From NCBI GenBank assembly GCA_001630475.1, contig KV419405.1, positions 367,769 to 431,768 on the forward strand: a stretch of DNA of 64,000 nt, written 5' to 3'. The stretch comes from Sistotremastrum niveocremeum HHB9708. Taxonomy: Eukaryota; Basidiomycota; Agaricomycetes; Sistotremastrales; Sistotremastraceae. Each line of letters opens with the position of its first letter. The first letter of the stretch is position 1. Shown piece after piece: positions 8,221-61,911 of the stretch. Below the pieces are notes generated by a model that saw only the letters and a program-made list of their open reading frames with translations, had not been told where the DNA came from and did no database searches. Both the position numbers and the translations under genes were made by a program.

Positions 8221-8319
8221 GACAGATGCTAGGTAATACAGTATGATTTATGGACACACGAACACTTCTTCCTACATGTCTTGGCACGTAATCTTCTTCC
8301 TCACTCGCCTTTATACTCA

Positions 8320-32230: not shown

Positions 32231-32637
32231 TTTGTATTGTTATCCTGTCGATCGTAGCCCTGATCAACGATAATGCGTGGAATGGAGCTAAACCTTTTCG
32301 TCTGAGATCATTGAGATCCAAGGCGTGCGACTCACTGCAAATAAGTTGGGTCCACCCTGGAAATTCACGCCAGGATGTATTGGGCGATATACGACGTGAC
32401 TGTCGACCGATGTGGGACAAAGCAAACAAGGGTTTGTTAGTTCAAACCCCGGCGGCCCGCTCTTTCCATCGATTGAACACGCGTTCTTTACGTAAATATC
32501 TCGAAGAGCGACAAATATATCCGATCCTTACCTCACCGATAGTCTCAGAAGGTAAGCTCTACGTGACGTTCCGACCCGATATAGCATTCGGCCCACATGA
32601 TGGTCTTACCAGTAAATCGACAAAATATCCAAGACAG

Positions 32638-32766
32638 GTGACGACTATGCAACGGAATCGCGGTGTGCCATCTATCCAGTACCGAACATGTTGGAATCGG
32701 ATTTATTGGATCACTTTAGGCCCTAAATTGGTGTATATAGTGCTCTACTATTATATTCTGCACTTG
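32638..32766 (+). pseudogene. Orphan last exon of a class 3 lipase gene
   Basis: After an AG acceptor (ends 32637) this stretch aligns with the last exon of the intact lipase at 60716-60840 (minus). The left copy reads GDDYATESRCAIYPVPNMLE then SDLLDHFRP before an early stop; the intact gene reads GDDDATDSQCTIASVPNILE then SDILDHLGPYNG. The rest of the lipase gene is not recognisable upstream, where the F-box gene begins, so this is a duplication remnant. A frame just before it (GKLYVTFRPDIAFG) might be a very diverged preceding exon, but I am not convinced. Confidence 0.65.
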
Positions 32767-33303
32767 AGAACGGTGTCAGGATGTTGCGGTTCTGGATCGC
32801 CTTCAACTACGGGCATGAGCTGTATTGATCTATGAGCTCGTACCATCATATAGTTGATGAGGTGCGAGAGAATGCACTTGAAATAATTTTGCTTCCGAAA
32901 GACTCGAGTACCCAAAAGGGAAAAAAAGATCCGTTGCCGGAAATGCCGCGCGAGCGCTGGCTGTCGCTTCTTCTCAGCAACGACGTCTGCTATAACAGCT
33001 GCTATATCTCTCGAAGACAGACATACAAGGACGACTCAGGCTGCTCTATGGGAGCAACATGAATCACTCTGGACGGGAAATTGACTGAATGCGACCAAAA
33101 TTGGGCTGTTGATAATTTCCTTTTCAAGCTACCTCGCGAGCTGCAGTAGATGTCTCAAGAATATTTGCGAAGAACAAACAGACTTTCGAATATATGAATC
33201 TGCCGAATACGCTACTACTCCTGTTCCCTACGTTCACACCCAGTGTAAACGCCGGTATCATCTACCACATTCACCACTCCACACAATCACTCGATTTTCA
33301 ACC

Positions 33304-33837
33304 ATGTTCGCACGCATCGCTGCCTCTGCATCCAACATCACCGGACGGATAGGACTCCGAGCGATCAGGACATCCAAGGCGGCCAAGCTTGTCGCAGATG
33401 CTTCTCGCTCGTCGACCTCCTCCTTGAAGACGGCCGCAACACCCTCCTTCACCCTCAATCCCGCGCATGCTCCCATTCCGACTTCTAGGATTTCTAGAGT
33501 TCGGGTTGAGAGTAATGCGACTCTGGCTGGTGCTCAGCGTTGCCTGTTCACTGTCAAGAAGTCAGACCCGCTGTGTCTCACTTCTGTCTCAGACACTTGT
33601 GAGACACCGTCGGTCAAGGTCAAGACTCCCAAGGCCAAGGTCAAGAAGACCACTCGCTGGGCCGACGAGGTACCGGATTCGAAGACCTCTCCAGTGAGCG
33701 TCCTCGCTGAAGTCAAGAAGGTCAAGAAGACGGTTCGTTTCGCCGAATATAGCCAGGTCAAGTACGTCCCCTTTCCCACAAGGGCGCGCAAGGCTATGTT
33801 GGCGGATTACCTCGCTACAAGACGGCACTGGCGATAA
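33304..33837 (+). CDS. Small basic protein with RVxF-like motif, left copy
   Basis: 178-residue intact single-exon frame. Start ATG at 33304 is chosen because the paralog at 59667-60203 starts at the same residue; an upstream in-frame ATG at 33109 is not conserved. The N terminus MFARIAASASNITGRIGLRA is Arg/Ala/Ser-rich without acidic residues, suggesting mitochondrial import. The C-terminal half has two related basic-aromatic motifs, KKTTRWADEVPDS and KKTVRFAEYSQVKYVPFP; KKTVRF matches the RVxF docking motif for protein phosphatase 1. The stop TAA is followed at once by a GTGAGT sequence, a possible 3' UTR intron donor. Function unknown. About 88% identical in protein to its partner by eye. 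Confidence 0.6.
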   Translation: MFARIAASASNITGRIGLRAIRTSKAAKLVADASRSSTSSLKTAATPSFTLNPAHAPIPTSRISRVRVESNATLAGAQRCLFTVKKSDPLCLTSVSDTCETPSVKVKTPKAKVKKTTRWADEVPDSKTSPVSVLAEVKKVKKTVRFAEYSQVKYVPFPTRARKAMLADYLATRRHWR

Positions 33838-34434
33838 AGTGAGTGCTTCATTTCGTATCAGCATTTGCTTCCTGCTTCGTTTGTCGAAGTGGGAGGGTTC
33901 GTCGATTCAGATGAGGGGACGCCCGAGGCTGAACCGACGTCACTGATATACTATGTTTCAGATCGAAGGTCCGTTGGATTGGGAGGCGAGACTTATTCTT
34001 TGAGGTTGGCTACCTCGGATTATAAGTCAAGCCTGGCACGTACCTGCCCCTCTGGCGAAGGGTTATGGTATATCGCCACTGTCTCTCTTCCTTTGCATCT
34101 TCGGCTCGCCACCGATGTTGTGTTGGTTGAGCGATCCAAGTCAGTGACAATGTCATCAACTCGTTGAGCTCATTCGTAGTCTGTCTGGGATGTTTCTCTT
34201 TGTGAGGACTGAGGCAGATGTGAATCGGACGAGCTTGATGAATTTTTGTGATCAACGTTTGGCCACGTTGTGACAATCTTTCAACATTGTCGGCTTCATG
34301 CAGACATTTACTGTGTACTCGAGTATACCGTATACATGGACCGGTACACTACGTCGACGGATGAGTTGCCGGACCCGAAACCCCCGCGCGAAAATAGACT
34401 AATTGTCTTTATTATGCTGTCAATATAGTAAATT

Positions 34435-34650
34435 TTGTCTGATTTTTTCTCGTCGCTACAGGCGTCGTCTGAGAAGAGCTCTGAGGACAATGAGAAGATG
34501 GTTACTACGGGCGCTAGTAGAGACGGAAGCGAGGAAGCGAGAGTGCCGAAGTCCGACGTGCTTCCGATGCTCGCTCTCTCGACCCCTTCTATTCAGCCCA
34601 TCGTTACCGCCTTGAGGAGTCAGCTGGAAATCGTCTGGAAAGCCATCTGA
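34435..34650 (+). CDS. Conserved short ORF in the duplication, left copy (doubtful)
   Basis: 71-codon frame, MSDFFSSLQASSEKSSEDNE onward, ending VWKAI. A CAG acceptor stands just before ASSEKSSED, so it may be an exon rather than a gene of its own. The frame is also open in the right arm (58852-59103, minus), but the two arms are almost identical here, so conservation says little. No known domain; rich in Ser/Glu. Confidence 0.25.
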   Translation: MSDFFSSLQASSEKSSEDNEKMVTTGASRDGSEEARVPKSDVLPMLALSTPSIQPIVTALRSQLEIVWKAI

Positions 34651-34874
34651 TGAGTGCTTGAACTACTCGTATTGCTCGCTGGGGCACTGACACTCCCGCA
34701 TCCGGCTTGGACGCACAGCGCTGTTCGTCAGGTCATGTTCCCCCTTCTCGACGCATCGACTGCGACCGCACGCTCTCTTTCACAACCAAGTTACCTGGTT
34801 AGAAACGACCTGCCCTAAACCACGGAATTTTCAATATCTTCCGAGTCTCCTATAGAGACTTTCTTCAGTCGTAC

Positions 34875-35880
34875 CATGAGGAGCGATGGGGTGGAGATTG
34901 AGGTCTTGGGGCTTCGGTCACTCGAACTCTCTCTGCTGCATCGTTTCCTCTCTGGTACTTCCTCTGTCGTCGCTGGCAGTGACTCGGGAAGGTAAACGCG
35001 CAAACTGTCTCCACCTCATGAAGCCTGCCTGTTCATGGGAGCACCCGGCACTAAAAACTGGGTGGAAATGTGGGGCATCAGGCGTGGCGAGGCTGGCGGC
35101 GGCGACATTCTGACCTTTCTGCTCTAGAGCTTCTTCCACGATGGCGTCGTTGACAGTCACTCGGCAAGGTAAACACGCAAACTGTTCGACCCCATGGAGC
35201 CTGCCTGTCCATGGGAGCACCCGGCACTAAAAACTGGGTGACATTGTAGGACATCAGGCGCGGCGAGGCTGTCGGCGACGTTGTGACGGTGATGATCTGA
35301 CGTTTTATTGCAGCAGCAACAACGAGGAGCGATGGGGTGGAGATCGAGGTCCTGGGGCTTCGGTCGCTGGAACTCTCTCTGCCCCATCGCTTCCTCTACT
35401 ACCTCTCCCGGCGCCGTTGTCAGTGACTCGATAAGGTAAACACGCAAACTGTCTCCACCTCATGGAGCCTGCCTGTCCATGGGAGCACCCGGCACTAAAA
35501 ACCGGGTGATATTGTGGGACATCAGGTGTGGCGAGGCTGGCGACGGCGACGGATATCTCACCTTCTGCTCTAGAGTTTCTTCCACCCACGGCGTCGTTGG
35601 CAGTCACTCGGCAAGGTAAACACGCAAACTGTTCCACCTCATGAAGCATGCCTGTTCATGGGAGCGCCCGGCACTAAAAACTGGGTGGAAATGTGGGACA
35701 TCAGGCGCGGCGAGGCTGTCGACGACGTTGTGACGGTGATGGACTCACTTTTTGCTGCAGCTTTCTATCGACGAGGAGCGATGGGGTGTGAGATCAAGGT
35801 CTTGTGGCTTCGGTCGCTCGAACTCTCTCTGCCGCATTGCTTTCTCTGCCGTTTCTTCCTCCCACTAGTGGCTCCCCTAT
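34875..35880. repeat. Tandem array of alternating A (~177 bp) and B (~270 bp) units, left arm
   Basis: The core with CCCGGCACTAAAAACTGGGT recurs at about 35050, 35227, 35494 and 35672, that is, spacings of about 177, 267 and 178 bp. The longer B units contain GAGGAGCGATGGGGTG and CTTCGGTCGCTGGAACTCTC, which A units lack; A units contain CTCTAGAG(C/T)TTCTTCCAC. The array opens with a partial B unit and reads (B)-A-B-A-B. Every unit has a donor-like AAGGTAAAC and an acceptor-like TGCAG or CTCTAG. The same order is found inverted at 57620-58625. No long consistent reading frame crosses it. Confidence 0.85.
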
Positions 35881-36256
35881 ATGATCTGAGGAGCTGTGAA
35901 TTGGGTGGATTATAGTCACGATACACTTTAGATGTACAGAATTCGGGTCGCCGGTGGTTTATGGGGTTACCCTAGCCACATCCAGCGAGTTCGATATTTC
36001 ACTGAGCGTCACATTTCTCTTCGGACTCTGCCAGATTTTGGCTATATATATTTACAAATTTGGGAAGCAAACTCGACCGGGCAGAGGTGCAGTACTGTGA
36101 GGCCGTCATTCTACCCCACGATATTGTACCTCGACTGGTGGAAGTAGAAGCACAGCTCTCAAACTGGCATATGTTCCCACAGGAACTATATTGGACGAAG
36201 TCCGTTCGTCAATAGCAAGTGTCGTACACGGCCTCCGAGTCGACTCTGCAGATGCT

Positions 36257-37013
36257 CTACGCCGCGACACTCTTGGTGGCGACCACCAGCTCATTGACAA
36301 TCCTCTTTTCTTCATCTCCTTTCACACCTGCAAGGACAACATCACCGTTGAGCTTGTACATCTAAGGGGATTCCATCAGCATATGCATCGGGCGATAGTG
36401 ATAGGAGACGCACCTTGCGTACAGCGGCCCAGTCTGTCACCGCAGACAACCGATCAAGCTCTACAGGCTCTCCATTCACGAGATCATTCATCGCGGTCTC
36501 AAGTTCCTCGATTGAAAGATGTGGTGGTCGTTCATTGACTCGAATGAGAATGAGCGATCGTGTCGATTTGGATACACCGAATCTTCGAAGAGCTTCCATT
36601 ATCTGAAACCCCATATAAGCGTTTCATTCGAGCAACGCAGACGTGAATTGGGTACCGAACGTTATTGGTAGGATTTAGGATATATATGATTTCCGAATGG
36701 ACAGTTTTAGTGCGTAGATTCGATTGAGTCGATGAGAGGAGAGCATGATCGACAGCAGTCTGCAACTGAGTCAGACTCGTCACCTAACAGCGACTTTATA
36801 ATTAGCGATGTCTCTGACCTAGACTGAAAGAAGTAGAACACACGAGCGTAGGATCCACGAATGCATAGTTCAGCAATGCCCGCTCTCGATCTCCTTCATC
36901 TCCTTCGAGAGTCGACGCAGCGATGATGCGTTTGAGGAGCTCTTCAGAATTGGACACGTTTTGGTAGAGAGCAATGTGGATTGTTACATCCAGATGTGGA
37001 ATAGCGTATACAT
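36257..37013 (-). pseudogene. CGI121-like copy with disrupted start, left arm
   Basis: Second copy of the KEOPS subunit gene at 56477-57244. From its ATG (37013) it lacks 4 nt after codon 2 relative to the intact copy, so the frame meets a stop at codon 10 and no other in-frame ATG lies upstream. Downstream all exons and GT-AG introns are preserved: VSNSEELLKRIIAASTLEGD, VTSLTQLQTAVDHALLSSTQ, IMEALRRFGVSKSTRSLILI, AMNDLVNGEPVELDRLSAVT and LNGDVVLAGVKGDEEKRIV, ending VAA with TAG at 36257-36259. The otherwise intact body implies recent loss, or use of a different first exon that I cannot see. Confidence 0.7.
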
Positions 37014-37023
37014 GATGATATAT

Positions 37024-37730
37024 TCAAGGATTGCCTAGCGCTCTCGACGTCTCAAAGTCGTTCCGGCGGAGTTGCTGAGAGCGATGGTCCTTCTCCTGTT
37101 CTCAGAACAGTTCTGCAGACATGTCGAGCCTGGCTCCTCTCCGGTGCTGACTATTGGACGACTCTGACGACTCCCTAATGCCTCGAGATTCAGAAGAATG
37201 CCTAAGGCGGGAATGATCAAACAGGCTCGTGGATCACTCGTGACACGAGTCGACCGATGAACAGAGCAATTTTGTGAGCCACCCTCTCGTCGTATGCAAT
37301 GAACTCTGGCTGTTTACCTGTTCGAAATATTATGACTTGAATACTTGGCGGCGTTGAATATTCTACCCATGGATCTTCTTGGATTACATTTTATGTGGAT
37401 GAAGCTTCGTCCGAGCCCCTCGATTCCGTTCGCACTCGAGCCCGACCATCGACCTCCTCAACTATTCCCGCTCGATCGATCGTGCTCCGTCTATGGCTCT
37501 AATAGATTTTCCTTACTTGGATGACATCAATTAGGACTGGCTTTTTCCACTTGCGGTCAAAAACGTCATCTTTGCATCGCAGCCACCAAAACCTATAGGG
37601 ATATTCCATTCTCCTACTACTTCATGAACGTTTGACTGTCGATAATGTTGAGCCTGCTCCACTAGTACTGGGTAGTATAAGAAGGTCGAAAAATTGTGGT
37701 TCAATCTAAGCCCCCTTTGTATCTTTTTCA
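37024..37730. promoter_or_regulatory. Spacer side of left arm and Rds1 promoter (TATA at 37675-37681)
   Basis: About 0.7 kb. A TATAAG box sits near 37676, 55 nt before the ATG of the Rds1-like gene, a normal fungal distance. The rest shows no gene that I can support; short frames on both strands lack motifs. Confidence 0.55.
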
Positions 37731-39045
37731 ATGTTCTCTCTCGCGTCCTTAGGAGCGCTCGCTCTCTCAGCTTCAGTACTCGCAGCTCCTCCACCTCCTA
37801 TGGTCGCTCCCTATACTCCCCAGGGTGGCTTAGGAACCAACTCGACGCCTTTCCAATATGCGCCGCTCAGTGACTTTGACTTTCAATCATTAGTGAGTAC
37901 TTCCTCAGATGTCAAACCTCCCTGAGCTTATATTCGGGCCACAGAACCTTGCCTTGAACCAGGAGTGGATAGAGCTCGACCTCTTCCACTATGGTCTCGC
38001 AAAGTTTTCCGTCGCAGACTTTGAGGCTGCAGGACTAGGTGCCGAAGACCGCTTCTTAATCGAATACATGGCAGACCAAGAAGTCGGACACGCAAAGCTA
38101 ATCACCAACATCCTCGGTCGTACGCCCCCATCTCCTTGTTCTACTTGATAGCTCCCTAACTCCTGACTCCCAGACGCCGCCGCCAAACAATGCACCTACA
38201 AATACTCCTTCAACACCGTCCGCGAATTCGTCGATACATGTATCCAAATCACCCGATTCGGCGAATCAGGCGTCTACGGCTTCTTAGAGCATTTAAATTC
38301 TCGACCTGCTGCTGAATTGTTGTTGCAGAGTATCTCGACGGAAGCTCGTCAACAGATGATTTTTAGGCAGTTTGAGGGATTGTTCCCTATGCCTGTATGG
38401 TTTGAGACGGGGGTTACGCAGAGTATGGCGTGGACGCTTTTGGCGCCGTATCTTGTTACTTGTCCGGCCGAGAATCCGAGGATTGAGTGGCAGAATTTCC
38501 CGGCTTTGAACATCACCGTGAGTATTCTGTGTCTTCCGAAGTTCGCGGCTTATTGGTTGGCAGAATAACCCTTCATACGTTGCTTTGAGCAATTCTTCGA
38601 CGATCGGAAACAACACTCTCCCCGCCATCACCCACAACCGATCCATCCCTCTATCATCCCCCGGCCGTACCATCGACTTATCATGGGAACTCCCTGGCAA
38701 GAAAGTAGGCTACAACCAATCCTACACAACCAACACAACCGCCGGACCCGGAAAGGTACTTCCCTTCCCCTCTCTCCTCTCCCCCCACTAACCTCACACA
38801 TTTAATAGTACGCAATCTGGATCTCCCAATTAAACACCACCTACACCCCTCTCGAAAACGTCAACGGTACAACCGGGACAACTACCCAGCCTGAAGGCTT
38901 CGTTTTCGGGAATGGGACGGCTCCAATCGTTAATGGGACGATGTTCGTCGCTATCACTGATACGAACCTTTACGTGACGCCCTTTAACCTCTCGATGGTG
39001 AATCCGCATATTGTTGCTGGGCCTGCTTTGTATATGTCAGGTTAA
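37731..39045 (+). CDS. Rds1-like secreted protein with ferritin-like fold
   Basis: Start ATG at 37731; signal peptide MFSLASLGALALSASVLAAP. After YTPQGGLGTNSTPFQYAPLSD a GT-AG intron leads to the ferritin-like helical domain: NLALNQEWIELDLFHYGLAK, FEAAGLGAEDRFLIEYMADQ EVGHAKLITN (an ExxH-type metal-site pattern), YKYSFNTVREFVDTC and FGESGVYGFLEHLNSRPAAE. STEARQQMIFRQFEGLFPMP and WTLLAPYLVTCPAENPRI follow. The C-terminal part is Asn-X-Thr rich (several N-glycosylation sites) and ends PHIVAGPALYMSG, TAA at 39043-39045. Fission yeast rds1 is a stress- and starvation-induced protein of unknown biochemical activity; most basidiomycete genomes have several copies. Intact, about five exons. Confidence 0.85.
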
Positions 39046-39568
39046 AGTCGTCGTATGCGCAGAATATAGAAGTGAAGAGAAAGTAAAATGTATTGTATAT
39101 ACTTAGATAATTAATGTCATTGCAATCGAACATCTTAGACGGTATGCGAGTCGAGAAATCTATGCCGGCTCTATAGAAGTAATCGGAAATAGCACATTTC
39201 CAGGCACAGTTTTTTTGAGCCCGAGCGTCGACGAAGTTTACGTAAGCAGTCCAAGCACTCCCCGCCGCTCTCGACATTTTATTCAATGTCCATCCTACTA
39301 TAATCCCCTCGACGATCTCGACGAACTGTGTCATCTCAAGTCCATCCTATTAACAGAGCGTCAAATGTCTTACTTATTTGTCCATGACATTCACAGCCCA
39401 TGTTCAACCTACACGTGCGGCATTCAGGCTCAGGCCAGGAACGTCCTTCGTGGCTTCTTGCAGCGTCTTTACGTGCCAGTACTTTCGGACATGTGAACAA
39501 AGATATCGGTCTGAAGAATGGACCGTGTTCCTGGACCTGATGGAAATGAATAAGAGAGGCTGGATAGG

Positions 39569-39574
39569 TATAAA
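39569..39574 (+). promoter_or_regulatory. TATA box of FAD oxidase 1
   Basis: TATAAA 50 nt upstream of the ATG at 39624. Its position supports the very short first coding exon (ATGGAG) chosen for this gene. The rest of the interval 39046-39623 shows no gene. Confidence 0.55.
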
Positions 39575-39623
39575 GCATCGCGGATTCGACGTGCTCGGGA
39601 TCATTGACTTTGTGTCGTAGCTA

Positions 39624-41862
39624 TGGAGGTACGTCGGCCGTTTTTTTGTATGCCTTGTGAAGTCTTTGATGGTTTGACAGAATATTGAGGCTGCCGTCGA
39701 AGAGCTCCGTGATCTCTGCGATGCACATCCTGGTACCCAATTATTCGTCGAAGGCACGTCATCTAGTATCCTGCCAGTACTAGTGCATCAATGGGTTGAC
39801 ATTAATGTTACGGCTATAGGAAGTCAAGGGTATAAAGATTCCGTACGACATTTCCTCGATAGCAGCAGTGAAGTCGCACATGTCGCTATCCAACCAGGCA
39901 CCGAAGCCGCTCTCGCCGAAATCGTATGTGTCCTCAACATGACAGTACAAGTGAATCATCAATTGATTATATCCAGATCAAAGTGATCGGGAAATACAAA
40001 GTCCCCTTCGCAGTTAGTCCCTCCCCCCCTTTTCCCATTCTCATCTTATTAATTCCATCATCGTAGGTAAAAGGTGGCGGACACTCCATGGTGCCCCTTT
40101 TCTCCTCCACAAAAGGCATCCAAATAGCCCTTAGCAGACTCGACAAAATGCACTACAACTCATCGGATCAAACAGTCCAAATAGGCGCAGGATGTCTCTG
40201 GGATCAAGTATATAAATACATGGCCCCGTTCAAGAGAAATGTAGTTGGTGGAGCTTCAGGGCAGGGTGTGGGCGTTGCGGGGTGGTTGCTTGGAGGAGGA
40301 TATTCGTTGAAGACTAATCAGTTTGGGTTGGGGATTGATAATGTTTTGAAGACTAGAGTTGTGTTGCCTGATGGACGGATTGTGGAGGCGAGCGACGAGA
40401 GTGAAGAATTCCGTGATTTGTTCCATGCTTTGCGGGTTTGTGTTTTTTGGTGATCTGGCGACTGGGATACTTTCTCATTCACCATGTTCTTTGTTGCAGG
40501 GAGGCGGTAATAACTTTGGGATTGTGACACAGTGGACTCTGAAAACTTATCCTCAAACGCTCGCCTATGTAAGCACTGTCCAGGAGTTGGTCTTATCCGT
40601 CGATTAAAATGCTCCTTACAGGGCGCATCCCTTTCATTCCCCGAGTCCAAAGCCGAAGAAGTGAAGAACGCGATTGTCGAATATCTAGAAACTGAAAAGC
40701 GACCTCAAGCAGCTATTGTTTGTGCTTTCAAGTGGACGCTGAGTCTCGGAAAGCCAAAGGTGCACCCGATATGAGTATCGGAAATCAACGAGCTAACGCG
40801 TTGCGGAACTAGCTGGCGATCACCGTCATGAGCGTCTTTGATGCACCCGCGCCCGCTGATAATCTTCCATTCCGAATGTTCAGCAAGCTCATCCCCGGCG
40901 ATTGGGGAAATGATCCAGCCAATTGGGGCGCACAGCAGGCCTTCATGGCTGCAGGTGCATTTAGCAATGCAGCAAACATCATGCCCAGTCGAACTGAACC
41001 GGCGGACGACTGGGATTACGGGATACCTCTCCGACCAATGTCATACGAAGATGTGAACGCCATCTCGTCGATCCCTTATCAAATTGTTCAGCCGCAGACA
41101 TCTACATCGTCCGGAGCACCAGCGAATGCATCTGGGTTTAATCTCCAGATGTTGCAGATGCTGGTATTCCAAACGTCGGCTTTACAATCCAACGCTATTG
41201 GGAATGCGAACGCACTGAAACCGTCGAAACCTTCGAAGCCGATGCTTGGCGTAGGCGAGTTGAACGCTCGGTAGGTATGCGCCTTTCTATCAAATTGCGC
41301 AATTGACACGTCTCTATGTAGCGGCCGATTTGGATCCATCATGGTCTCTCGTTATACGAAAGGTCTCATAGACGAGGTCGCGAGGCAAGCTGAGGTATGT
41401 ATCCGCATTGCACGAAGGTAGAAAACTCTGATTTCGTCCATCTATATATAGCTGGCGTCCAAATTCCTAAGCACCAACGGAGGCAAACATATACTAATTG
41501 ACGTCTGGCCATTCCGCAGCGACATCTTCGACAAAGCCGCTCCGGGCGCTGCATGGCCTCACGAAGCAGGAAAAGGTTTCGGTCCCCTTCTAGTCTATTT
41601 CCTTTGGGACGACGAGAAAGACGACGAATTCTGGCTCACGCTTATGAAGAATACATTGGAGACTCTTCTGGAAGTCGCGCTTGCGGAGGGCGCTACTGTT
41701 CCTGATGTTGCTCAGTATCTCAATCTTTCTTTGGAAGATGTTCCTGTGGAGTATGTTTATCGGGGAAATCTGGAGGCGTTGGGGAGAGTGCGGCAAAAAT
41801 ATGATCCGAATGATGTGATGGGTCAGACTGGAGGCTTCAGGATTCCGCTTGTTTCCTTTTAG
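39624..41862 (+). CDS. FAD-linked oxidase, berberine-bridge (BBE/AA7-like), copy 1
   Basis: Oxidoreductase with PCMH-type FAD domain and C-terminal BBE domain. A 6-nt first coding exon (Met-Glu) is spliced to NIEAAVEELRDLCDAHPGTQ. FAD-domain motifs: SQGYKDSVRHFLDSSSEVAH, VKGGGHSMVP (the His that usually binds FAD covalently), IGAGCLWDQVYKYMAP, VVGGASGQGVGVAGWLLGGGYS, and GGGNNFGIVTQWTLKTYP. The second, Cys-type flavin attachment site is absent from the VGVAGWLLGGG loop, so single covalent attachment is likely. BBE end: VYRGNLEALGRVRQKYDPND VMGQTGGFRIP; stop at 41862. One intron (39754-39819) has a GC donor. I see no signal peptide, so the protein may be cytosolic. Paralog of 50456-52609. Confidence 0.85.
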
Positions 41863-42456
41863 GATGTCTAGACTCGAAAGTTATTGGGAGCATCCGATGG
41901 GGCTAGGGAAACCCAGTTTATTGATGAAGTTGAAGGCGTTGGTAAACATGGCCAAACAAACTATTTGTTCGCTCTGTCCATATTCCCAAGCCCAGTCCCT
42001 GCTAGGGGCTTGGCTAAATCCACTCCCCTAGCCATTCGAAATGCGCATTTTGAAACATTGACAAACAACTCTTTTTGGTCCGTTAGTAGTTGCAGCTTCG
42101 GTAAATTGTTGTTGTTCTTTTTTCGTTTGCTCAATCATGAGTCTTTTGCAGTGTGCCTTCGGATTGTCTCCTTGTGGAGATTGTAATGTGGAATTTTTCT
42201 GCTATCATCATGCCGCGAATGAGCTCGTCGTACTTGCATTATTGACTTACCTGCGCAAGTTTCCAGTGAAGCATGCTGAACATTAATAAGGTTGGTTTAT
42301 TATGCAGATATATGTACAGGGAAATATGATTAGATATCGATCTTAATAGAGATGAAGCTATGATTAGACATGCGAATTTCCCAAGCAGCCCATAGCTCGA
42401 GTATCCGTCACTCAGCCCAGCGCTAGAACTCCCGAGTATTCCAGCAGCCATCAGTC

Positions 42457-47091: not shown

Positions 47092-47137
47092 AAGTAGCTC
47101 GATGCCTCGAAAAAAATGTAGTACAGAATATATGTGA

Positions 47138-52609: not shown

Positions 52610-52872
52610 TCGTATTAGGTCATGCCACCATCGACTGGACGGAATATGTCAATGAAAGATTTGAGAGTCTGAATTAAGATTCATAGTGAGCCGAGACGAT
52701 TTAGGTTTCCGTGACTGGGTGCACAAGCGCTATAGTAGCTCAGCGTTCTCTCTATATAATTGATCATAACGACTACACGTGCACCTTTCGGGATCTACTC
52801 CCGCCCTTTCAAAGTACGTCCGCGCTAGTGTTCCCGCACAACGCAGTACTCTATGACAACAGTCCATGCGTA

Positions 52873-54735
52873 TCACATGTTATTGCCTGCGACAGACTCT
52901 AGAGCTTCACTTTTGGCCACTTTCATCAAGATACCAACTTGTTCCGCGACTGAGCGCAGCACTCCTCGAACTTCAGCATTCCCTTCCACAAAGCCAAACT
53001 CGGCGTATTCAAGGCCGTGCTCTGCTGCAAACTCCTTCACAAGTACGCTGGCACGTTTGAGATTGTGTCGGGGAAGGCGCGGGAATAGATGATGGGTGAC
53101 TTGAAGATGGAGTCCTCCATGTAAGAACTCGACCGACGGATCGCACTTGACGTCAGTCGTAGTTCGTAGCTGGCGATGTGGGAAAGACTCGAATGGTCCC
53201 AGATCCTCCGTAGAGCGCGAGAAGTGCGAGAGAACGATCTGTCGATGATCATACGAATGAGCCAGTGATACGGTCATGCACACTATAACTTACCTGCACA
53301 TGGAGAGGGCTTGGAACTACATGGCTGACGAGGAGGTATAAGGCTCGCATTCTCCATGTAGGAATGCCCTTCAAGAGAAGACCGAACCAACACCAAAATA
53401 ACGCGATGCAAGCGATTTCCAACCACCAAACGAACTTGCCTCCCCGGGCATCCTTCCGATCTCGGGCATGTTTGAAGAGGAACGAATAAGAGTTGGCGTA
53501 TAGATTGAACCGAGCCAGAGACATGACGACGTAGAACAGCATGTGCTGAGCACCGATCAAATAGGTCGAGAAGGCATCGAAAGCCATGACTCTTTTATAG
53601 TATGATGACCAGAGGGATGTTAAGAAGTGGGGAGAAATGGCGAAGAACGGGATATGCTGTACGATCAGATTAGCTCCAAGAGACGACACGGTTCGATAGC
53701 TGCAGGATCCCTTACCTGAATATCCGGATCGTGCGATGGATGGTTTGTGACAACTGTGAGTCCAAGGCATCAGGTTTCCGCAACACCGAGTAGGGGCTAC
53801 GTCTTACGATGATGGATATTGTGATTCTGGAGAAGAATGAGCGTCGGTTTGAGTTGGTAGCTAACTCGTTAACTCACATCGACCCACCAACCAATGCTCA
53901 GACCACCAAGGAAATCGGCAATGAAAACGCCCAATAGACGATCGATAACCCAGCTATGTGTAACGCCATTATGACCCAAGTCATGCGCGGTAAACGTGAG
54001 CTGATGCCAGAAGCCGCCCAAGAATATAGCACTGCATATATACCAGCGCTGATAATAGGTCAATGCTGCCAGGAGGCCTAGCAGCGTATATCTGAGGACT
54101 TCGGGTCCGTAACCAGTGAAGAAAGGAGTCGCATAAAGCCCTTGCTCTTTGATTCGGCGATGTAGCTCGTCATACTCTCGAGTTTGTTTCCATTGTTCCG
54201 AGCGTGATAGCGATGGCGGGGAGGAAATTAAACTCTCCATAGTAGGCGTAACAGATGAAGCATCCCCGACAATGTCCTTGTCTACGAGTAGGATCTGTGA
54301 TTGCGGTGTCGGTTCTATCGTGCCATCCAAACGAAGGGGGCGAGCCTCTTGGTACCATTCGCCGTTTTTACGAATCCAGCCGCTCTGGACAGGGGGTATG
54401 AATGGTTCCCAACCCAGTTCTGTACTCTCGACCTTCCCCACTATAAAGCTCCTGATGCGTTTCAAAGCTTCCTCTGGATGATATGCGGCTATCTCATTTT
54501 GTGCGTCCCTTCCAACAAAATGCAATATGGCCAGTGCGCCACCAGGATGTTTGACGAGCCAGGAGTCTGGTATCCGAAGCAAACTATCGCCAAGGATGAC
54601 GAGAGTGTCCCCCTGAAGAATACCATCAGCGACCTCACGACGGGTCCATATTCGCTCGCTGTTCATGGAGGCGGTCGGGTCGAAAGCGGCCGCGGCGGCT
54701 GCGAGGTCGGAAATCGTCGGAATTCCGGAACCCAC
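52873..54735 (-). CDS. Delta-8 sphingolipid desaturase with N-terminal cytochrome b5 domain
   Basis: ER membrane enzyme placing the delta-8 double bond in the long-chain base of fungal glucosylceramides (family knowledge). Start at 54735 ([20 protein letters not shown]); a second Met at 54666 begins MNSERIWTRREVADGI, the usual family start. The b5 domain has the heme motif HPGG in SWLVKHPGGALAILHFVGRD. Three His boxes of a front-end desaturase: HDLGHNG, HNIHH (in NHNIHHLVTNHPSHDPDIQ), and QVTHH in HLQVTHHLFPRLPRHNLKRA. The first His of the b5-fused third box is replaced by Gln, as expected. Membrane helices lie between boxes. It ends SVAGNNM at 52873. Intact, about six exons. Confidence 0.92.
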
Positions 54736-55139
54736 CCTTCATCGTTCCGAGTCGGCCCTGACTCACTGGCAATATTCAGCACTGCAAGTTCTCCGCCGCT
54801 CTCCCTTCAGCTTCACGGTCGCCGGCTCTGTTGAACTTGCATACGGCGCCGTACTATCCTGCTTCCTATTGGGTGTATCCAATGTTGACTGGCGAGTCTT
54901 CTCAACAAGAAGTCTGAACTTCAAGTTGGCAACGACCGGTGCTTCCCTGGCTGCCTTCTGTAGTATAGTCTTGCTTCAGTCAGCGACCAAATTTGTCGTC
55001 TTGTGTCATTTGGCTTGCTTGGATGCTATGCTGGCTCGCCCTCTTGATTGCAGAGTCCATCCCCGTGCGAATTTTCGCCGTACGAATCATATAAGAAACG
55101 AGGGCTCACCTGTCACTTCTCTCTATCGACCACACCCCA

Positions 55140-55870
55140 TTCCCACTCGCCTGCTAGGTTCTCCTAGCGGGTGCCCACTGTCTGCCGGACGAAATCGACA
55201 ATGGTTCCAGACATTATGTGCTGGGTCAGCGACTGTCCAGGGCCCCAGCGACGCTTCGGCGTCGTATGACCCTGGCTGTCCACCATTGTTCGAGGGCCTA
55301 GGAGGGCGCACGGTTTCTTTTCCCCACCTGCATTGCAGGGCTCATCGTCCTCTGGACGAAATCCACATCGTTCCAGCCATTATATGGCTGGGTAAGCCGA
55401 CGTGGAGAGCCAAGCGAGGGACCGGCATAACCTACTTCAACCTCACCTGCCTTATGCGCGATGGCCTCCTGCATCGCGTGAATGCGCGGGGCTCACCGTC
55501 CTCTGGACGAAATCCACAGTGGCTCCAGACATTATGTGCTGGGTCAGTGATAGTTCAGGGCCCCAGCGATGCTTCGGCGTCGTATGGCCCCTTGCTATCC
55601 GCCACTGTTGGAGAGCCGGTCATTGACCTAGTGAGAGTCCGCGCCACTCAAGGGAAATCATTTCGATTTTCCTCAGCCTCACCTGCTTAGCTTTTGCTTC
55701 GCAGGGCTCGTTGTCTGACGACAGTATCCATTCCGCTGCTTGCAGCAATGGAGAGCCTAGTGAGGTGGCGACCCCCACCCCAGCTTCACCTGCATAGCAG
55801 GGCTCCCTGTCCTTGTGACGAAATCCCCATCACTGCTTGCAGCGATGTCGGAGAGCCTAGTGATAGCCAA
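55140..55870. repeat. Tandem hairpin-bearing repeat array, copy 2
   Basis: Same family and same orientation as 29455-30178. Units again carry GGACGAAATCCACAGTGGCTC-like and TTATGTGCTGGGTCA cores and end GGAGAGCCTAGTGA. They are joined by CACCTGC...GCAGGGCTC junctions that can fold back (CCTGCATAGCAGG; CTGCTTAGC...GCAGGG). At least five units, of varying length (about 90-200 bp), more diverged than copy 1. A long frame on + crosses it (54665-55690) but overlaps the desaturase N terminus antisense and has no domain, so it is not called. Confidence 0.78.
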
Positions 55871-56476
55871 CCCAACCCTCATTCCAGTCTCAACTGCCTA
55901 TCGAGCACTGGCGTGACCACCACTGCAGGGTCACAACACTGAGGTGTATATGTACTACATGGATTTTCTGCCGATGAGTGGGGAATCCCGATTGTCGATG
56001 ACATGCGAGCCACGGGTCGCGTACCCGGTATGTCTTTTTCTTTCTAGATCGTCGTCTTGGCTGATGTCCCCTCACACTCATATAATCAGCTTGCGACAGC
56101 CATGAACTCCAAATATGTCCATCGAATGGTCGTTTTGATTCTGACTTTTGTTGCTCCTGCTCTTGTTCTGAACGTTGTCGAACCATAGAATCCCTTGTTG
56201 GTGATAATATTGTGACAGGGCATAGCAGAGATAATGGGCATCTGTGAAACTTGAAATTAAATGGGACAGCTAATGGTCTTTGACGATTTTTGTGTTACTG
56301 TAAAGAATGTGTTCAGAGAATAGCCAGCCCAGACGCATTGGCATAGTTTGGCATGCCCACTATCGAAATAGCCAAAACGACTTTCGGAAACCCCGCAGCG
56401 GATATCGGATCATCATTTTTCCCGAAATCGCTGTCGACATCGACGCCAGGCAATCCTAGCTATATAATATATCACC

Positions 56477-57244
56477 ATGTATTCATACGCCATCCCACAT
56501 CTCGACGCAACCATACACATCGCCCTCTACGAAAACGTTTCCAATTCCGAAGAGCTCCTCAAACGCATCATTGCAGCGTCGACTCTAGAAGGGGATGAAG
56601 GAGATATAGAAAGGGCTACTTTGAACTATGCATTCGTAGATCCTACACTCGTGTGTTTTACTTCTTTTATCTAGGTGAGAGGCATCACTGACTTGAAGGT
56701 CGTTGATAGGTTACGAGTCTGACTCAGTTGCAGACTGCCGTCTATCATGCCCTCCTCTCGTCCAGTCAATCGAATCTACGCACTAAAACTGTCCATTCCG
56801 AGATCATATATATTCTAAATCCCACCAATAACGTTCGGTATCTAATGCACTTTCATTTCGCTCGGATCGAGTGCTTATATGGTGGATAGATAACGGAGGC
56901 GCTGCGAAGATTCGGTGTATCCAAATCGACACGATCGCTCATTCTCATTCGAGTCAATGAACGACCTCCGCATCCTTCAATCGAGGAACTTGAGACCGCG
57001 ATGAATGATCTCGTGAATGGAGAGCCTGTAGAGCTTGATCGGTTGTCTGCGGTGACAGACTGGGCCGCTGTACGCAAGGTGCGCCTCATATCACTATCGC
57101 CCGATGCATATGCTGATGGAATCTCCTTAGGTGTACAAGCTCAATGGCGACGTTGTCCTTGCAGGTGTGAAAGGAGACGAGGAAAAGAGGATTGTCAATG
57201 AACTCGTGATCAGCACAGTCGCTACAAAGAGTGTCGCGGCGTAG
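56477..57244 (+). CDS. CGI121: KEOPS/EKC complex subunit Cgi121 (TPRKB homolog)
   Basis: Binds the kinase Bud32 within KEOPS, which makes the t6A modification at A37 of ANN-decoding tRNAs and affects telomeres in yeast. Start ATG at 56477: MYSYAIPHLDATIHIALYEN, then VSNSEELLKRIIAASTLEGD, ending exon 1 at NYAFVDPTL. Introns separate VTSLTQLQTAVYHALLSSSQ, ITEALRRFGVSKSTRSLILI and AMNDLVNGEPVELDRLSAVT DWAAVRK. The last exon is VYKLNGDVVLAGVKGDEEKR onward, ending SVAA, TAG at 57242-57244. About 190 residues, the usual length. Four exons, all GT-AG and in frame. Its copy at 36257-37013 has a disrupted start. Confidence 0.88.
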
Positions 57245-57619
57245 AGCAGCCGCAGAGTCGACTTAGAAGCCGTCTGTGACACTTTCTGTTGCGGAACGGA
57301 CTATGTCCAATGTAGTCCCTGTGGGAACATATGCCAATTTGAGAAATGTGCCTCTACTTCGACCAGTTGAGGTACAATATCGTGGGGTAGAATGACGGCC
57401 TCACAGTACTGCACCTTTGCCCATTCGAGTTTGCTTCCCAAATTTGTAAATATATATAGCCAAATCTGGCAGAGTCCGAAGAGAAATGTGACGCTCAGTG
57501 AAATATCGAACTCGCTAGATGTGGCTAGGGTAACCCCATAAACCACCGGCGACCCGAATTCTGTACATCTAAAGCGTATCGTGACTATAATCCATCCAGT
57601 TCACAGCTCCCCAGATCAT

Positions 57620-58625
57620 ATAGGGGAGCCGCCAATGGGAGGAAAAAAGGCAGAGAAAGCAATGCGGCGGGGAGAGTTCGAGCGACCGAAGCCCCAAGAC
57701 CTCAATCTCACACCGCACCGCCCCTCGTCGTTGAGAAGCTGCAAGAAAAAGTAAGATCATCACCGTCACAACGTCGTCGACAGCCTCGCCACGCCTGATG
57801 TCCCGCATTTCCACCCAGTTTTTAGTGCCGGGTGCTCCCATGAACAGGCAGGCTTCATGAGGCTGGACAGTTTGCGCGTTTACCTTAACGAGTGACTGCA
57901 ACGACGCCAGAGGTGGAAGAAGCTCTAGAGCAGAAGGTGAGATATCCGTCGCCGTCGCCAGCCTCGCCACACCTGATGTCCCACAATATCACCCAGTTTT
58001 TAGTGCCGGGCGCTCCCATGGACAGGCAGGCTCCATGAGGTGGAGACAGTTTGCGTGTTTACCTTATCGAGTCACTGAAAACGGCGCCGGGAGAGGTAGT
58101 AGAGGAAGCGATGGGGCAGAGAGAGTTCCAGCGACCGAAGCCCCAGGACCTCGATCTCCACCCCATCGCTCCTCGTCGTCGTCAGAAAGCTGCAACGAAA
58201 GGTAAGATCATCACCGTCACAACGTCGTCGACAGCCTCGCCGCGCCTGATGTCCGACAATATCACCCAGTTTTTAGTGCTGGGCGCTCCCATGGACAGGC
58301 AGGCTCCATGGGGTCGAACAGTTTGCGTGTTTACCTTATCGAGTGACTGTCAACGACGCAATCGTGGAAGAAGCTCTAGAGCAGAAAGGTCAGAATGTCG
58401 CCGCCGCCAGCCTCGCCACGCCTGATGCCCCACATTTCCACCCAGTTTTTAGTGCCGGGTGCTCCCATGAACAGGCAGGCTTCATGAGGTGGAGACAGTT
58501 TGCGCGTTTACCTTCCCGAGTCACTGCCAGCGACGACAGAGGAAGTACCAGGGAGGAAACGATGCAGCAGAGAGAGAGTTCGAGTGACCGAAGCCCCAAG
58601 ACCTCAATCTCCACCCCATCGCTCC
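57620..58625. repeat. Tandem array of alternating A and B units, right arm
   Basis: Inverted partner of 34875-35880. The core CCCAGTTTTTAGTGC(C/T)GGG lies at about 57814, 57991, 58264 and 58441, spacings 177, 273 and 177 bp, the same order as in the left arm. Array structure was therefore present before or shared after the duplication. No gene called; frames across the units are not consistent between copies. Confidence 0.85.
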
Positions 58626-58851
58626 TCATGGTACGACTGAAAAAAGTGTCTATAGGAGACTCGGAAGATATTGAAAAATCCGTGGTTTAGGGCAGGTCGT
58701 TTCTACCCAGGTAACTTGAATGTGAAAGAGAGTCTTTGGTCGCAGTCGATGCGTCGAGAAGGGGGAACATGACCTGACGAACAGGGCTGTGCGTCCAAGC
58801 CGGATGCGGGAGTGTCAGTGCCCCAGCGAGCAATACGAGTAGTTCAAGCAC

Positions 58852-59103
58852 TCAGCAGATGGCTTTCCAGTCGGTTTCCAGTTGACTCCTCAAGGCGGTA
58901 ACGATGGGCTGAATAGAAGGGGTCGAGAGAGCGAGCATCGGAAGCACGTCGGACTTCGGCACTCTCGCTTCCTCGCTTCCGTCTCTACTAGCGCCCGTAG
59001 TAACCATCTTCTCATTGTCCTCAGAGCTCTTCTCAGACGACGCCTGTAGCGACGGGAAAAAAATCAGACAAAATTTACTATACTGACAGCATAATAAAGA
59101 CAA
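58852..59103 (-). CDS. Conserved short ORF in the duplication, right copy (doubtful)
   Basis: Partner of 34435-34650: an 83-codon frame with SLQASSEKSSEDNEKMVTTG and ALSTPSIQPIVTALRSQLE. It differs at its start and end from the left copy through small indels, which argues against strong constraint. It may be an exon, since an AG acceptor precedes ASSEK. Confidence 0.22.
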   Translation of the reverse strand: MSLLCCQYSKFCLIFFPSLQASSEKSSEDNEKMVTTGASRDGSEEARVPKSDVLPMLALSTPSIQPIVTALRSQLETDWKAIC

Positions 59104-59666
59104 TTAGTCTATTTTCGCGCGGGGTTTTCGGGTCCGGCAACTCATCCGTCGACGTAGTGTACCGGTCCATGTATACGGTATACTCGAGTATACAGTAAAT
59201 GTCTGCATGAAGCCGACAATGTTGAAAGATTGTCACAACGTGGCCAAACGTTGATCACAAAAATTCATCAAGCTCATCCGATTCTCATCTGCCTCAGTCC
59301 TCACAAAGAGAAACATCCCAGACAGACTACGAATGAGCTCAACGAGTTGATGACATTGTCACCGACTTGGATCGCTCAACCAACACAACATCGGTGGCGA
59401 GCCGATGATGCAAAGGAAGAGAGACGGTGGCGATATACCATAACCCTTCGCCAGAGGGGCAGGTACGTGCCAGGCTTGACTTATAATCCGAGGTAGCCAA
59501 CCCCAAAGAATAAGTCTCGCCTCCCAATCCAACGCACCTTCGATCTGAAACATAGTATATCAGTGACGTCGTTCCAGCCTCGGGCGTCCCCTCCTCTGGA
59601 CCGACGAACCCTCCCACTTCGACAAACGAAGCAGGAGGCAAATGCTTATAAAATGAAGAACTCACT

Positions 59667-60203
59667 TTATCGCCAGGCACTTCTTGAAGCGAGGTGTTCC
59701 GCCAACATAGCCTTGCGCGCCCTTGTGGGAAAGGGAACGTACTTGACCTGGGTATATTCGGCGAAACGAACCGTCTTCTTGACCTTCTTGACTTCAGCGA
59801 GGACGCTCACTGATAAGGTCTTCGAATCCGGTACCTCGTCGGCCCAGCGAAAGCTCTTCTTGACATTGGCCACGGGAGTCTTGACAGTGACCTTGGCCCG
59901 CGGTGTCTCACAAGTGTCTGAGACAGAAGTGAGACACAGCGGGTCTGACTTCTTGACAGTGAACAGGCAACGCTGAACACCAGCCAGAATCGCATTACTC
60001 TCAACCCGAACTCTAGGAATCCTAGAAGTCGGATTGGGAGCATGCGCGGGATTGAGGGAGAGGGAGGGTGTCGCGGCCGTCGTGGAGGAAGTCGACGAGC
60101 GAGAAGCATCTGCGACAAGCTTGGCCGCCTTGGATGTCCTAATCGCTCGGAGTCCTATCCGTCCGGTGATGTTGGATGCAGAGGCAGCGATGCGTGCGAA
60201 CAT
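59667..60203 (-). CDS. Small basic protein with RVxF-like motif, right copy
   Basis: Intact 178-residue frame, partner of 33304-33837. Start ATG at 60203 (MFARIAASASNITGRIGLRA, import-like leader). The centre differs by small in-frame indels (a Leu-Lys loss near residue 41, two residues gained near residue 115). The motifs KKSFRWADEVPDS and KKTVRFAEYTQVKYVPFP are kept, as is the tail PFPTRARKAMLAEHLA. Differences between copies keep the frame and cluster outside the two motifs, suggesting selection on the protein. No known domain otherwise. Confidence 0.6.
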   Translation of the reverse strand: MFARIAASASNITGRIGLRAIRTSKAAKLVADASRSSTSSTTAATPSLSLNPAHAPNPTSRIPRVRVESNAILAGVQRCLFTVKKSDPLCLTSVSDTCETPRAKVTVKTPVANVKKSFRWADEVPDSKTLSVSVLAEVKKVKKTVRFAEYTQVKYVPFPTRARKAMLAEHLASRSAWR

Positions 60204-60715
60204 GGTTGAAAATCGAGTGATTGGGTGAAGTGGTGAATGTGGTAGTTGATACCGGCGTTTACACTGGGTGTGAACGTAGGAAACAGGAGCAGTAGCAGAG
60301 TCGGCTGGTTCATATATTCGAACATCTATTTGTTCGTCGCAAATATTCTTGAGACATGTAGTGTAGCTCGCGAGGTAGCTCGAAAAGGAAATGATCGATA
60401 GCCCAATTGGGTTCGCCTCCAGCCGGAGCCATTAATATGCTGATGCCATAGTACACGCTGAGCCTTCGGTGAGACCTCGAGTTCGAATTATAGCAGATGT
60501 CGTGGACGTGGTCGAGAAGAAGCGACACGCTGCAAGCGCTCGGGCGGCAATCTCGGCAATGGAACTTCTGCCCCTTTTGAGTCTTTCGGAAGCAAAAGTT
60601 TACTCTCAGGGACAGCGCGCGCGCACCTCAAAAATACAATAAAACACGAACTAAATAAATACAGCTTCTGCACATATTTGAAAGTAACCCAGCATACGAG
60701 ACCCCGTCACCGCCC

Positions 60716-61911
60716 TCAGGTGCAGGATAGGGTACCAATATATACCCCATTATAAGGCCCCAAATGATCCAGTATATCCGATTCCAGGATGTTCGGTACT
60801 GAAGCGATGGTACACTGCGAGTCAGTCGCATCATCGTCACCTGACATGGGTAATTCGTCAATTTGAGACTTTCATTTGGATTGAATAGCACGTACCGGGA
60901 CATGATACCCAATCCAAAGCCGAATCTGTAACGATGTGGACCTCTCCGTGGGGATGTTGGAAGCCCAAGAACCGTCCAGGAACGATAGGGATAGGATCAA
61001 GAACGTTGTTGATATGCGTCACATCTGAGATATGCGAATCAACCCAGGAAGCAAATGCTGGATTGCCGACCTGTAGCCGACTGTGAGTAAAGGTAAGATC
61101 ACGAAGAAGCAGGAAACTTACGCGAGGCAATCCGAACGCGACCAATTTTATCGCGATATTCGAGGGAAGATTGACTTTCATGAATACCGCGTCTAACAAT
61201 GCCAATGCTCCACCAAGCGAATGTCCAACCTGATCAAAGATTCACGATCAGACGGGACACGAAAGCTGTTTCGCAGAAAATGGATTACCAATGTGACGCT
61301 CGTCGCGCCCTTCTGCTTAATGATCGTCTTGACAGTAGACAATATCGAAGATGCAGTCAAAGCGTGTTCGTTGGCAAATCCAGCGTGGACTTCGATGCTG
61401 CTTGACATGCCGGGGAATAATGAAGGGTTAAGAGTCGTCATTAGGATGTCAACATCCGTAAGGAGACTCAAGCTGTATGTGGAATTGTTTCGACAATGAG
61501 AGACGGCAGATGAAGGATAAAATATCCCTACAATTGCGTAGGGTCGGTTCCCTGATGCGCTACGACGACGCTCCTTGTCTTCGGCTCATACCCGACGAAA
61601 ACTTCAGCTCAGGTTAGCATTGAATCCGCGTGCGAGTAGACAAACTCACAAAACTGAACGATATTCCCGTCTCCTCCAACAAGATACGGTATAAAATCAG
61701 AGTTGGCCTCGCAAGCTTGTCCACAGAACCAGCCCGCAGTCAAGAGGGGGTTGCAGTACGCTGCTCGGGCGAATTGAGCGTATGGAGTGTACGTTGAGAT
61801 TTGAGACGATGAGAGTGTCGTCACGGATCTGGATTGGTGGGCGATCGGGGATACCGGTGTCGCTTGAACGGATGCCACGGAGAGCAAAGAGAACAGAATG
61901 GTCGTCCACAT
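60716..61911 (-). CDS. Secreted class 3 lipase
   Basis: Alpha/beta-hydrolase triacylglycerol lipase or feruloyl-esterase-like enzyme. Start ATG at 61911, chosen because it opens a signal peptide (MWTTILFSLLSVASVQATPV); an upstream in-frame Met at 61962 lacks that property. Then ISTYTPYAQFARAAYCNPL, YEPKTRSVVVAHQGTDPTQL, VHAGFANEHALTASSILSTV, and the nucleophile elbow GHSLGGALALLDAVF with the catalytic Ser. Next LVAFGLPRVGNPAFASWVD, the Asp region NNVLDPIPIVPG, and the His region FQHPHGEVHIV. After WVSCPG an intron leads to the last exon GDDDATDSQCTIASVPNILE SDILDHLGPYNGVYIGTLSC T, TGA at 60716-60718. The paired Cys near the end is typical. About six exons, intact. The last exon lies inside the inverted duplication. 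Confidence 0.9.

What the first reader, a model, noticed from the sequence alone, without database searches (positions are those of the whole stretch)
32635..60850. Large inverted segmental duplication flanking a 19.4-kb gene block
Two arms of about 4.4 kb (32635-37023 and 56465-60850) are reverse complements, carrying the same ordered features. Such long inverted repeats permit inversion of the spacer by recombination between arms. The spacer holds seven genes, including two FAD oxidases and the sphingolipid desaturase.
Basis: seen in the sequence. Interest (0 to 1): 0.75.

Follow-up and report, generated by a model that had tools for sequence, protein, structure and literature searches.

The report
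Old inverted duplication with homogenised centre
A 4.4-kb stretch of a wood-inhabiting fungus's genome is present twice in mirror-image orientation around about 19 kb of ordinary genes; it is a real, old duplication whose middle seems to have been kept alike by copying between copies, and nothing here shows that the genes in between are flipped.

Summary
Arm A (32614-37040) and arm B (56444-60864) form one continuous inverted match, 89.5% identical, around 19.4 kb of spacer. An assembly artefact is unlikely: each arm's ORF has its own counterpart in S. suecicum, and the arm-B counterpart lies on a contig of the same length as a spacer gene's.

Each arm holds a 178-codon lineage-specific ORF, a mostly non-coding core with four repeated intron-like units, and the KEOPS gene CGI121. 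The ends look old, the middle young: CGI121 synonymous divergence is 0.39 and outer-flank divergence about 0.3, while ORF and core differ by about 4-6%. Three core copies on this contig are about 95% alike; two on other contigs are less alike. I read this as ectopic gene conversion limited to the centre. That is well supported for arm B with the third copy and inferred for arm A with arm B. Arm A's CGI121 has lost its in-frame start; arm B's is complete.

Spacer inversion is possible, but nothing here could show it. New example of a known kind; low-to-moderate interest.

The parts
32614..37040 (+). Arm A of the inverted duplication
   Evidence: 89.5% inverted match to arm B
56444..60864 (-). 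Arm B of the inverted duplication
   Evidence: 89.5% inverted match to arm A
37041..56443 (.). Spacer of 19.4 kb with ferritin-like, FAD oxidase, F-box-like, S9 peptidase, GDI-family, FAD oxidase and desaturase genes
   Evidence: Pfam on the strands scanned; 416-aa ORF at 42457-43707
33304..33837 (+). 178-codon ORF in arm A, lineage-specific
   Evidence: open in A, B and C12:572k; 5 of 5 hits from Sistotremastrum
59667..60203 (-). The same ORF in arm B (178 codons)
34406..35909 (+). Core of arm A, mostly non-coding, also present at C12:505k, C24:158k and C16:487k
57591..59095 (-). Core of arm B (borders approximate)
34992..35127 (+). Intron-like unit A1
   Evidence: GT...AG repeat unit
35169..35313 (+). 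Intron-like unit A2
35436..35573 (+). Intron-like unit A3
35616..35760 (+). Intron-like unit A4
58376..58511 (-). Intron-like unit B1
58190..58334 (-). Intron-like unit B2
57925..58062 (-). Intron-like unit B3
57739..57883 (-). Intron-like unit B4
56477..57244 (+). CGI121 of arm B: four exons (56477-56650, 56710-56832, 56890-57078, 57131-57244), 199 codons, with ATG and stop
   Evidence: model; PF08617
36257..37008 (-). CGI121 of arm A: same four exons, no in-frame ATG
   Evidence: its public record is named partial; PF08617

Best explanation
This is an old inverted segmental duplication. A 4.4-kb segment (lineage-specific ORF, non-coding core, CGI121) exists twice in opposite orientation about 19 kb apart (shown; how it was copied is unknown). 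Since the duplication both ends of the arms have diverged, while the central 2.5-2.8 kb has been partly reset by ectopic gene conversion among the two arms and a third core copy about 80 kb from B and 103 kb from A on the same contig (inferred). CGI121 was under purifying selection for most of that time (inferred from dN/dS). Arm A's copy then lost its in-frame start, leaving arm B's as the complete gene (the lesion is shown; the order of events is inferred). Inversion of the spacer by crossing over is possible, unobserved, and not needed to explain anything seen here.
For: Continuous inverted match. CGI121 A/B dS 0.39 and dN 0.026, 44 synonymous against 11 non-synonymous changes, but ORF A/B dS 0.041 and dN 0.068 in the same arms. 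Core differences 74 of 1920 sites against 147 of 627 in the outer flank plus the ORF 5' region and 35 of 196 in the CGI121 introns. Core copies on C12 (A, B, C505) differ by 4.6-5.7%, but A from the C24 and C16 copies by 17-18% in the multiple alignment or about 13-15% in BLAST matches. B and C505 share 347 identical bases, P 0.0006 with neighbouring differences merged. Each arm's ORF is identical over the shared first exon to its own S. suecicum counterpart, while A and B differ by 12%, so the arms are older than that split.
Against: For A with B, and for A with C505, the longest identical tracts are not significant once neighbouring differences are merged (P 0.09-0.19 and 0.11). The mosaic order of site patterns weakens from median P 0.002 to 0.195 as sites are thinned from 3 to 15 bases. 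Low dN and low dS together could also mean nucleotide-level constraint instead of recent conversion. The divergence of the C24 and C16 copies is inflated because their first 50-130 aligned bases are not homologous. CGI121 exon-1 dS rests on only 40 synonymous sites.
Confidence: 0.7

Rival explanations
1. The centre of the arms is under strong constraint at the nucleotide level (for example as a spliced non-coding RNA), and the low divergence there reflects selection, not conversion.
For: The ORF has dN and dS both low and dN/dS 1.66. The intron-like units pair in 195 of 195 cells of two hairpins, with 4 cells changed on both sides.
Against: Core copies on C24 and C16 have diverged by about 13-18%. 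The identical 347-base B-C505 tract is patchy, not uniform. Single-unit folding energy is ordinary in 6 of 6 units tested (z +0.42 to -1.91). No Rfam family reaches its gathering score in 32000-37500.
Confidence: 0.2
2. The arms act as a recombination switch: crossovers between them repeatedly invert the 19-kb spacer, so that both orientations occur in the population.
For: Arms are inverted, 4.4 kb long, with identical tracts up to 191 bases and signs of exchange between copies. The C12:505k and C12:572k pieces look like two halves of one copy in opposite orientation 65 kb apart, as an inversion break would leave (inference).
Against: No second orientation was seen, and none could be seen with the data at hand. 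Arms are only 89.5% identical overall. The spacer holds ordinary genes with no evident reason to be switched. In the human Y palindrome P6 frequent conversion goes with rare inversions (PMC3723533, abstract).
Confidence: 0.1
3. The arms are the terminal repeats of a large mobile element and the spacer is its cargo.
For: Long inverted repeats at both ends of a gene block.
Against: No sharp ends: divergence rises to about 0.29-0.31 in the outermost 500 bases. No transposase, integrase or recombinase family among the Pfam matches in the frames scanned (the spacer was not scanned on every strand). Pieces of the arms lie elsewhere without this spacer. Target-site duplications were not searched for.
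Confidence: 0.03
4. Assembly artefact: one arm is a misplaced copy or an alternative haplotype.
For: Inverted repeats often break assemblies; an S. suecicum record ends inside the arm-A gene (P0001, named partial).
Against: Arms differ by 9-10% and lie between different sequences. Both arm types exist in the S. suecicum assembly, and the arm-B type lies on a contig of the same length (28947) as a spacer gene's (equal length read as the same contig).
Confidence: 0.02

Closest known systems
Gene-converted palindromes of sex chromosomes, such as human Y P6 (PMC3723533, abstract read)
   Same: Large inverted arms with sequence exchange between them; in P6 conversion is frequent and inversions are rare.
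   Different: P6-type arms exceed 99.9% identity over their length; here arms are 89.5% identical and only the centre is homogenised. The contig shows no mating-type genes in two searches.
Ectopic gene conversion among paralogs in Aspergillus flavus and A. oryzae (PMC12844118, abstract read)
   Same: Conversion among several homologous copies in one chromosome region of a fungus, with gene decay in some copies.
   Different: Different phylum and genes; the abstract does not mention long inverted arms.
Introner-like elements of fungi (PMC4457414, abstract read)
   Same: Near-identical intron-like units present in several copies in a fungal genome.
   Different: Here all 17 matches lie in one repeat family at five loci, so they spread with the core and not as independent introns.

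Membership tests
Segmental duplication (usual definition, recalled: at least 1 kb and 90% identity) | Length of at least 1 kb | tested here: met
   4.4 kb
Segmental duplication (usual definition, recalled: at least 1 kb and 90% identity) | Identity of at least 90% | tested here: inconclusive
   89.5% in the BLAST alignment, 91.1% over aligned bases of 32640-37009: on the border
Gene-converted palindrome | Inverted arms around a spacer | tested here: met
Gene-converted palindrome | Arms almost identical over their whole length | tested here: not met
   divergence from 0.012 in the centre to about 0.3 at the outer end
Gene-converted palindrome | Conversion between the arms | tested here: inconclusive
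   uneven divergence strongly suggests it; the A-B identical-tract test is not significant
Inversion switch | Both orientations of the spacer occur | not testable with these tools
   one assembly only; no reads; S. suecicum contigs known only by length
Introner-like elements | Near-identical introns scattered in unrelated genes | tested here: not met
   17 matches, all at the five core loci (counts are lower bounds)
Terminal-inverted-repeat mobile element | Sharp repeat ends | tested here: not met
   identity decays outward
Terminal-inverted-repeat mobile element | Target-site duplication | not tested
   not searched for
CGI121 (KEOPS subunit) | PF08617 domain over its cut-off | tested here: met
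   4 matches over 25 bits, two in each arm and none elsewhere in the genome

The most novel reading that the evidence does not exclude
The core with its tandem, hairpin-bearing intron-like units is itself a functional spliced non-coding RNA or a local recombination hot spot that draws conversion to the centre of each copy, so that the arms stay recombinable in the middle while their genes diverge.
Probability: 0.1. Interest if true: 0.5.

Novelty: new member of a known kind. Interest (0 to 1): 0.3.

Why it matters
It is a compact natural case for studying ectopic gene conversion in a mushroom-class fungus: the same arms hold a conserved gene that kept its age and a centre that looks reset. It also warns that dating a duplication from one gene can mislead about ten-fold (dS 0.39 against 0.04 in the same arms). 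The lost start in one CGI121 copy beside an intact one marks a gene-loss event that could be dated. If the spacer did invert, it would be a new example of inverted-repeat-mediated structural variation, but that is unshown.

Tried and rejected
Mating-type locus: homeodomain (PF05920) matches lie on C69 and C14, and STE3 matches on C35 and C13; of 3 and 25 matches none is on C12. Repeat-induced mutation: 225 transitions against 162 transversions between the arms, 56 of the transitions in CpG context, so no single mutation type dominates. GC-biased conversion: core GC is 0.55 against 0.49 for the window, but the copies on C24 and C16 have it too, and A-strong/B-weak and A-weak/B-strong differences are 146 and 167, so no sign of bias between arms. 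Known RNA family: none of five matches in 32000-37500 reaches its gathering score (E 0.67-4.2). Dispersed introners: rejected. Core as one coding gene: spliced core exons of A, B and C505 have stops in all three frames beyond a short open stretch. Core as trigger of local duplication: core loci L008 and L010 are bracketed by direct repeats, but C12 pieces without a core (L012, L013) have repeats too, core locus L011 has none of 300 bases or more, and 4 of 4 control pieces have none; at most a property of this part of C12, and the sample is small. Runs test: the raw result (0 of 10,000) overstates the mosaic because changes cluster; the collapsed version was unfair, since merging same-type neighbours cannot change the number of runs; I replaced it by thinning. 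ORF as protein: after 31, 45 or 60 random changes no stop arises in 42, 29 or 20% of simulations, so the open frame alone is weak evidence. RNA structure: the second hairpin alone does not exceed its shuffles (287 of 500 reach it), and of the measures the number of pairs with changes on both sides is reached by 423 of 500 shuffles. Literature: searches; in their listings (titles and starts of abstracts) I saw no paper on this locus or on a duplicated fungal CGI121; one search listed 10 of 27 papers.
Full report
Where it is. The window is contig C12, bases 367769-431768, of a 34.7-Mb genome in 111 contigs. Protein P0002, identical to the arm-A ORF over its first 142 residues, is recorded from Sistotremastrum niveocremeum HHB9708 on a contig of 929182 bases, the length of C12. 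I therefore take the genome to be that fungus; NCBI taxonomy now places the species in Sertulicium, Sistotremastrales.

The repeat is real. Comparing the window with itself gives one long inverted match, 32614-37040 against 60864-56444, at 89.5%. Between 32640 and 37009, 386 of 4323 aligned bases differ. The stated borders are good to about 20 bases. The match is far beyond chance (E = 0).

It is unlikely to be an artefact. The arms differ by 9-10% and lie between different sequences. The arm-A ORF is identical over its first 142 residues to S. suecicum P0001, and the arm-B ORF over the shared first exon to P0005. P0005 and the S. suecicum counterpart of the spacer's 416-aa ORF (P0108, 100% identity) are both on contigs of 28947 bases; reading equal length as the same contig is an inference. 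P0001 lies on a contig of 44479 bases and is named partial, as expected if that assembly stopped inside the arm-A core.

What the arms contain. From the outside inwards: a 178-codon ORF (A 33304-33837; B 59667-60203) whose 5 database hits are all from Sistotremastrum; a mostly non-coding stretch with a core (34406-35909 in A) in which four intron-like units of 136-145 bases alternate with short exon-like pieces; and CGI121, a subunit of the KEOPS tRNA-modification complex, on the opposite strand. In this genome PF08617 matched only in the two arms (4 matches).

Partial copies elsewhere. A search with arm A gave seven matches: the two arms; C12:505k with the core (91%); C12:572k with the ORF part (87%); C24:158k with part of the core (86%); and C16:487k with the core in two pieces (85 and 87%). 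Such counts are lower bounds. The 505k copy matches arm A at 34403-36161 and the 572k copy at 32965-34308. Together they look like two halves of one further copy, now in opposite orientation 65 kb apart; this would fit an inversion break but was not tested.

Old at the ends, young in the middle. For CGI121, A against B gives 44 synonymous and 11 non-synonymous changes, dS 0.39 and dN 0.026; exon 1 alone has dS 0.90 on 40 synonymous sites and exons 2-4 0.26. The ORF in the same arms has dS 0.041 and dN 0.068. In 250-base blocks divergence is 0.29-0.31 at the outer end, 0.08 at 33100-33349, 0.012-0.108 from 33350 to 36099, 0.124 and 0.044 from 36100 to 36599, and 0.15-0.17 at the inner end. Core differences, 74 of 1920 sites, are far fewer than the 147 of 627 in the outer flank plus the ORF 5' region (P about 1e-43) and the 35 of 196 in the CGI121 introns (P about 4e-12). 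The intron borders used there come and were revised (intron 1 is shorter), so the intron figure is approximate.

Why gene conversion. The core pairs A-B, A-C505 and B-C505 differ by 5.0, 4.6 and 5.7%, while A-D24, A-E16 and D24-E16 differ by 16.6, 18.3 and 15.3% in the multiple alignment. The latter three are somewhat inflated by non-homologous start positions; BLAST gives about 13-15% for A against these copies and 10-11% between them. The three copies on C12 are thus much more alike than the rest, although A and B are old by their CGI121 genes. B and C505 share 347 identical bases (P 0.0006 when differences within 6 bases are merged); the longest A-B tract (191 bases, P 0.09-0.19) and A-C505 tract (215 bases, P 0.11) are not significant on that test. 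The order of site patterns along the core is clustered on raw sites (0 of 10,000 shuffles), but after thinning at 3, 6, 10 and 15 bases the median P is 0.002, 0.011, 0.031 and 0.195. Conversion is the best reading, well supported for B with C505 and inferred for A with B. The main alternative is nucleotide-level constraint, which would also lower dN and dS together.

CGI121. Arm B has a complete four-exon gene of 199 codons. Arm A has the same exons but is 4 bases shorter beside the start codon; its ATG is out of frame, and a stop lies a few codons upstream in the coding frame. The public record that matches arm A is named partial and begins without Met. Of 9 aligned amino-acid differences, arm B agrees better with other homologs at 6 and arm A at 3 (using 59 of the 101 other hits). 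The low dN/dS suggests that both copies were constrained for most of their history, so the loss in arm A looks recent (inference).

The intron-like units. A pattern search in the fetched core loci gave 17 units of 134-146 bases, one of them interrupted by an assembly gap. The other 16 all begin with GT and end with AG. Two hairpins pair in 195 of 195 cells over 13 distinct sequences, with 4 cells changed on both sides; sliding the partners drops pairing to 20-47%. Against this, folding energy is ordinary in six units tested (z +0.42 to -1.91), only one pair carries the two-sided change (reached by 423 of 500 shuffles), and the second hairpin alone does not exceed its shuffles. A conserved RNA structure is possible, not proven. 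No transcript data were available; calling them introns rests on their ends and on a branch-point-like CTNAC (motif recalled).

Spacer. Pfam finds a ferritin-like gene, two FAD_binding_4 oxidases, an S9 peptidase, a GDI-family gene and a cytochrome-b5/fatty-acid desaturase (mainly the strands with long open frames were scanned). The two oxidases are paralogs, 53-84% identical by exon-sized piece. One of three hits of the 416-aa ORF is labelled F-box. Nothing in this block suggests a switch.

Papers. Abstracts of PMC12844118, PMC3723533 and PMC4457414 were read. Other papers were seen only in search listings.

Verdict. It is an old inverted segmental duplication with a homogenised centre. Inversion of the spacer remains a possibility without evidence.

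Noticed in passing
L012:2414-4196 and 7272-9068 (C12:434182-435964 and 439040-440836): A second inverted duplication, 78% over 1815 columns, just right of the window.
   Followed up: no
window 12468-14576 and 14986-17097; 120-988 and 3368-4226: Direct duplications at 65% and 67%; this part of C12 seems rich in local duplications, 4 of 4 other C12 pieces against 0 of 4 controls.
   Followed up: partly
window 34992-35760 and 57739-58511: Tandem array of GT...AG units with two conserved hairpins, found only in this repeat family.
   Followed up: partly
window 33304-33837 and 59667-60203: Lineage-specific ORF with 25.5 non-synonymous against 5.5 synonymous changes between arms (dN/dS 1.66); its arginine-rich start resembles a mitochondrial targeting signal (recalled, not tested).
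   Followed up: partly
C12:505439-507202 and C12:572307-573644 (L008, L009): Two partial copies with complementary parts of the arm in opposite orientation, as if one copy had been split by a 66-kb inversion.
   Followed up: no
L010:3788-4514 and 6172-6885: The core copy on C24 lies between 82% direct repeats of about 740 bases.
   Followed up: partly
window 39000-42300 and 49600-52800: The two FAD oxidases of the spacer are paralogs in the same orientation.
   Followed up: partly
window 29441-30214 and 55167-55933: Short internal repeats at 29.4-30.2 kb and 55.2-55.9 kb also resemble each other, 65-73%.
   Followed up: no
G000 C35 and C13: 25 STE3 (pheromone receptor) matches fall in two groups of neighbouring places.
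   Followed up: no
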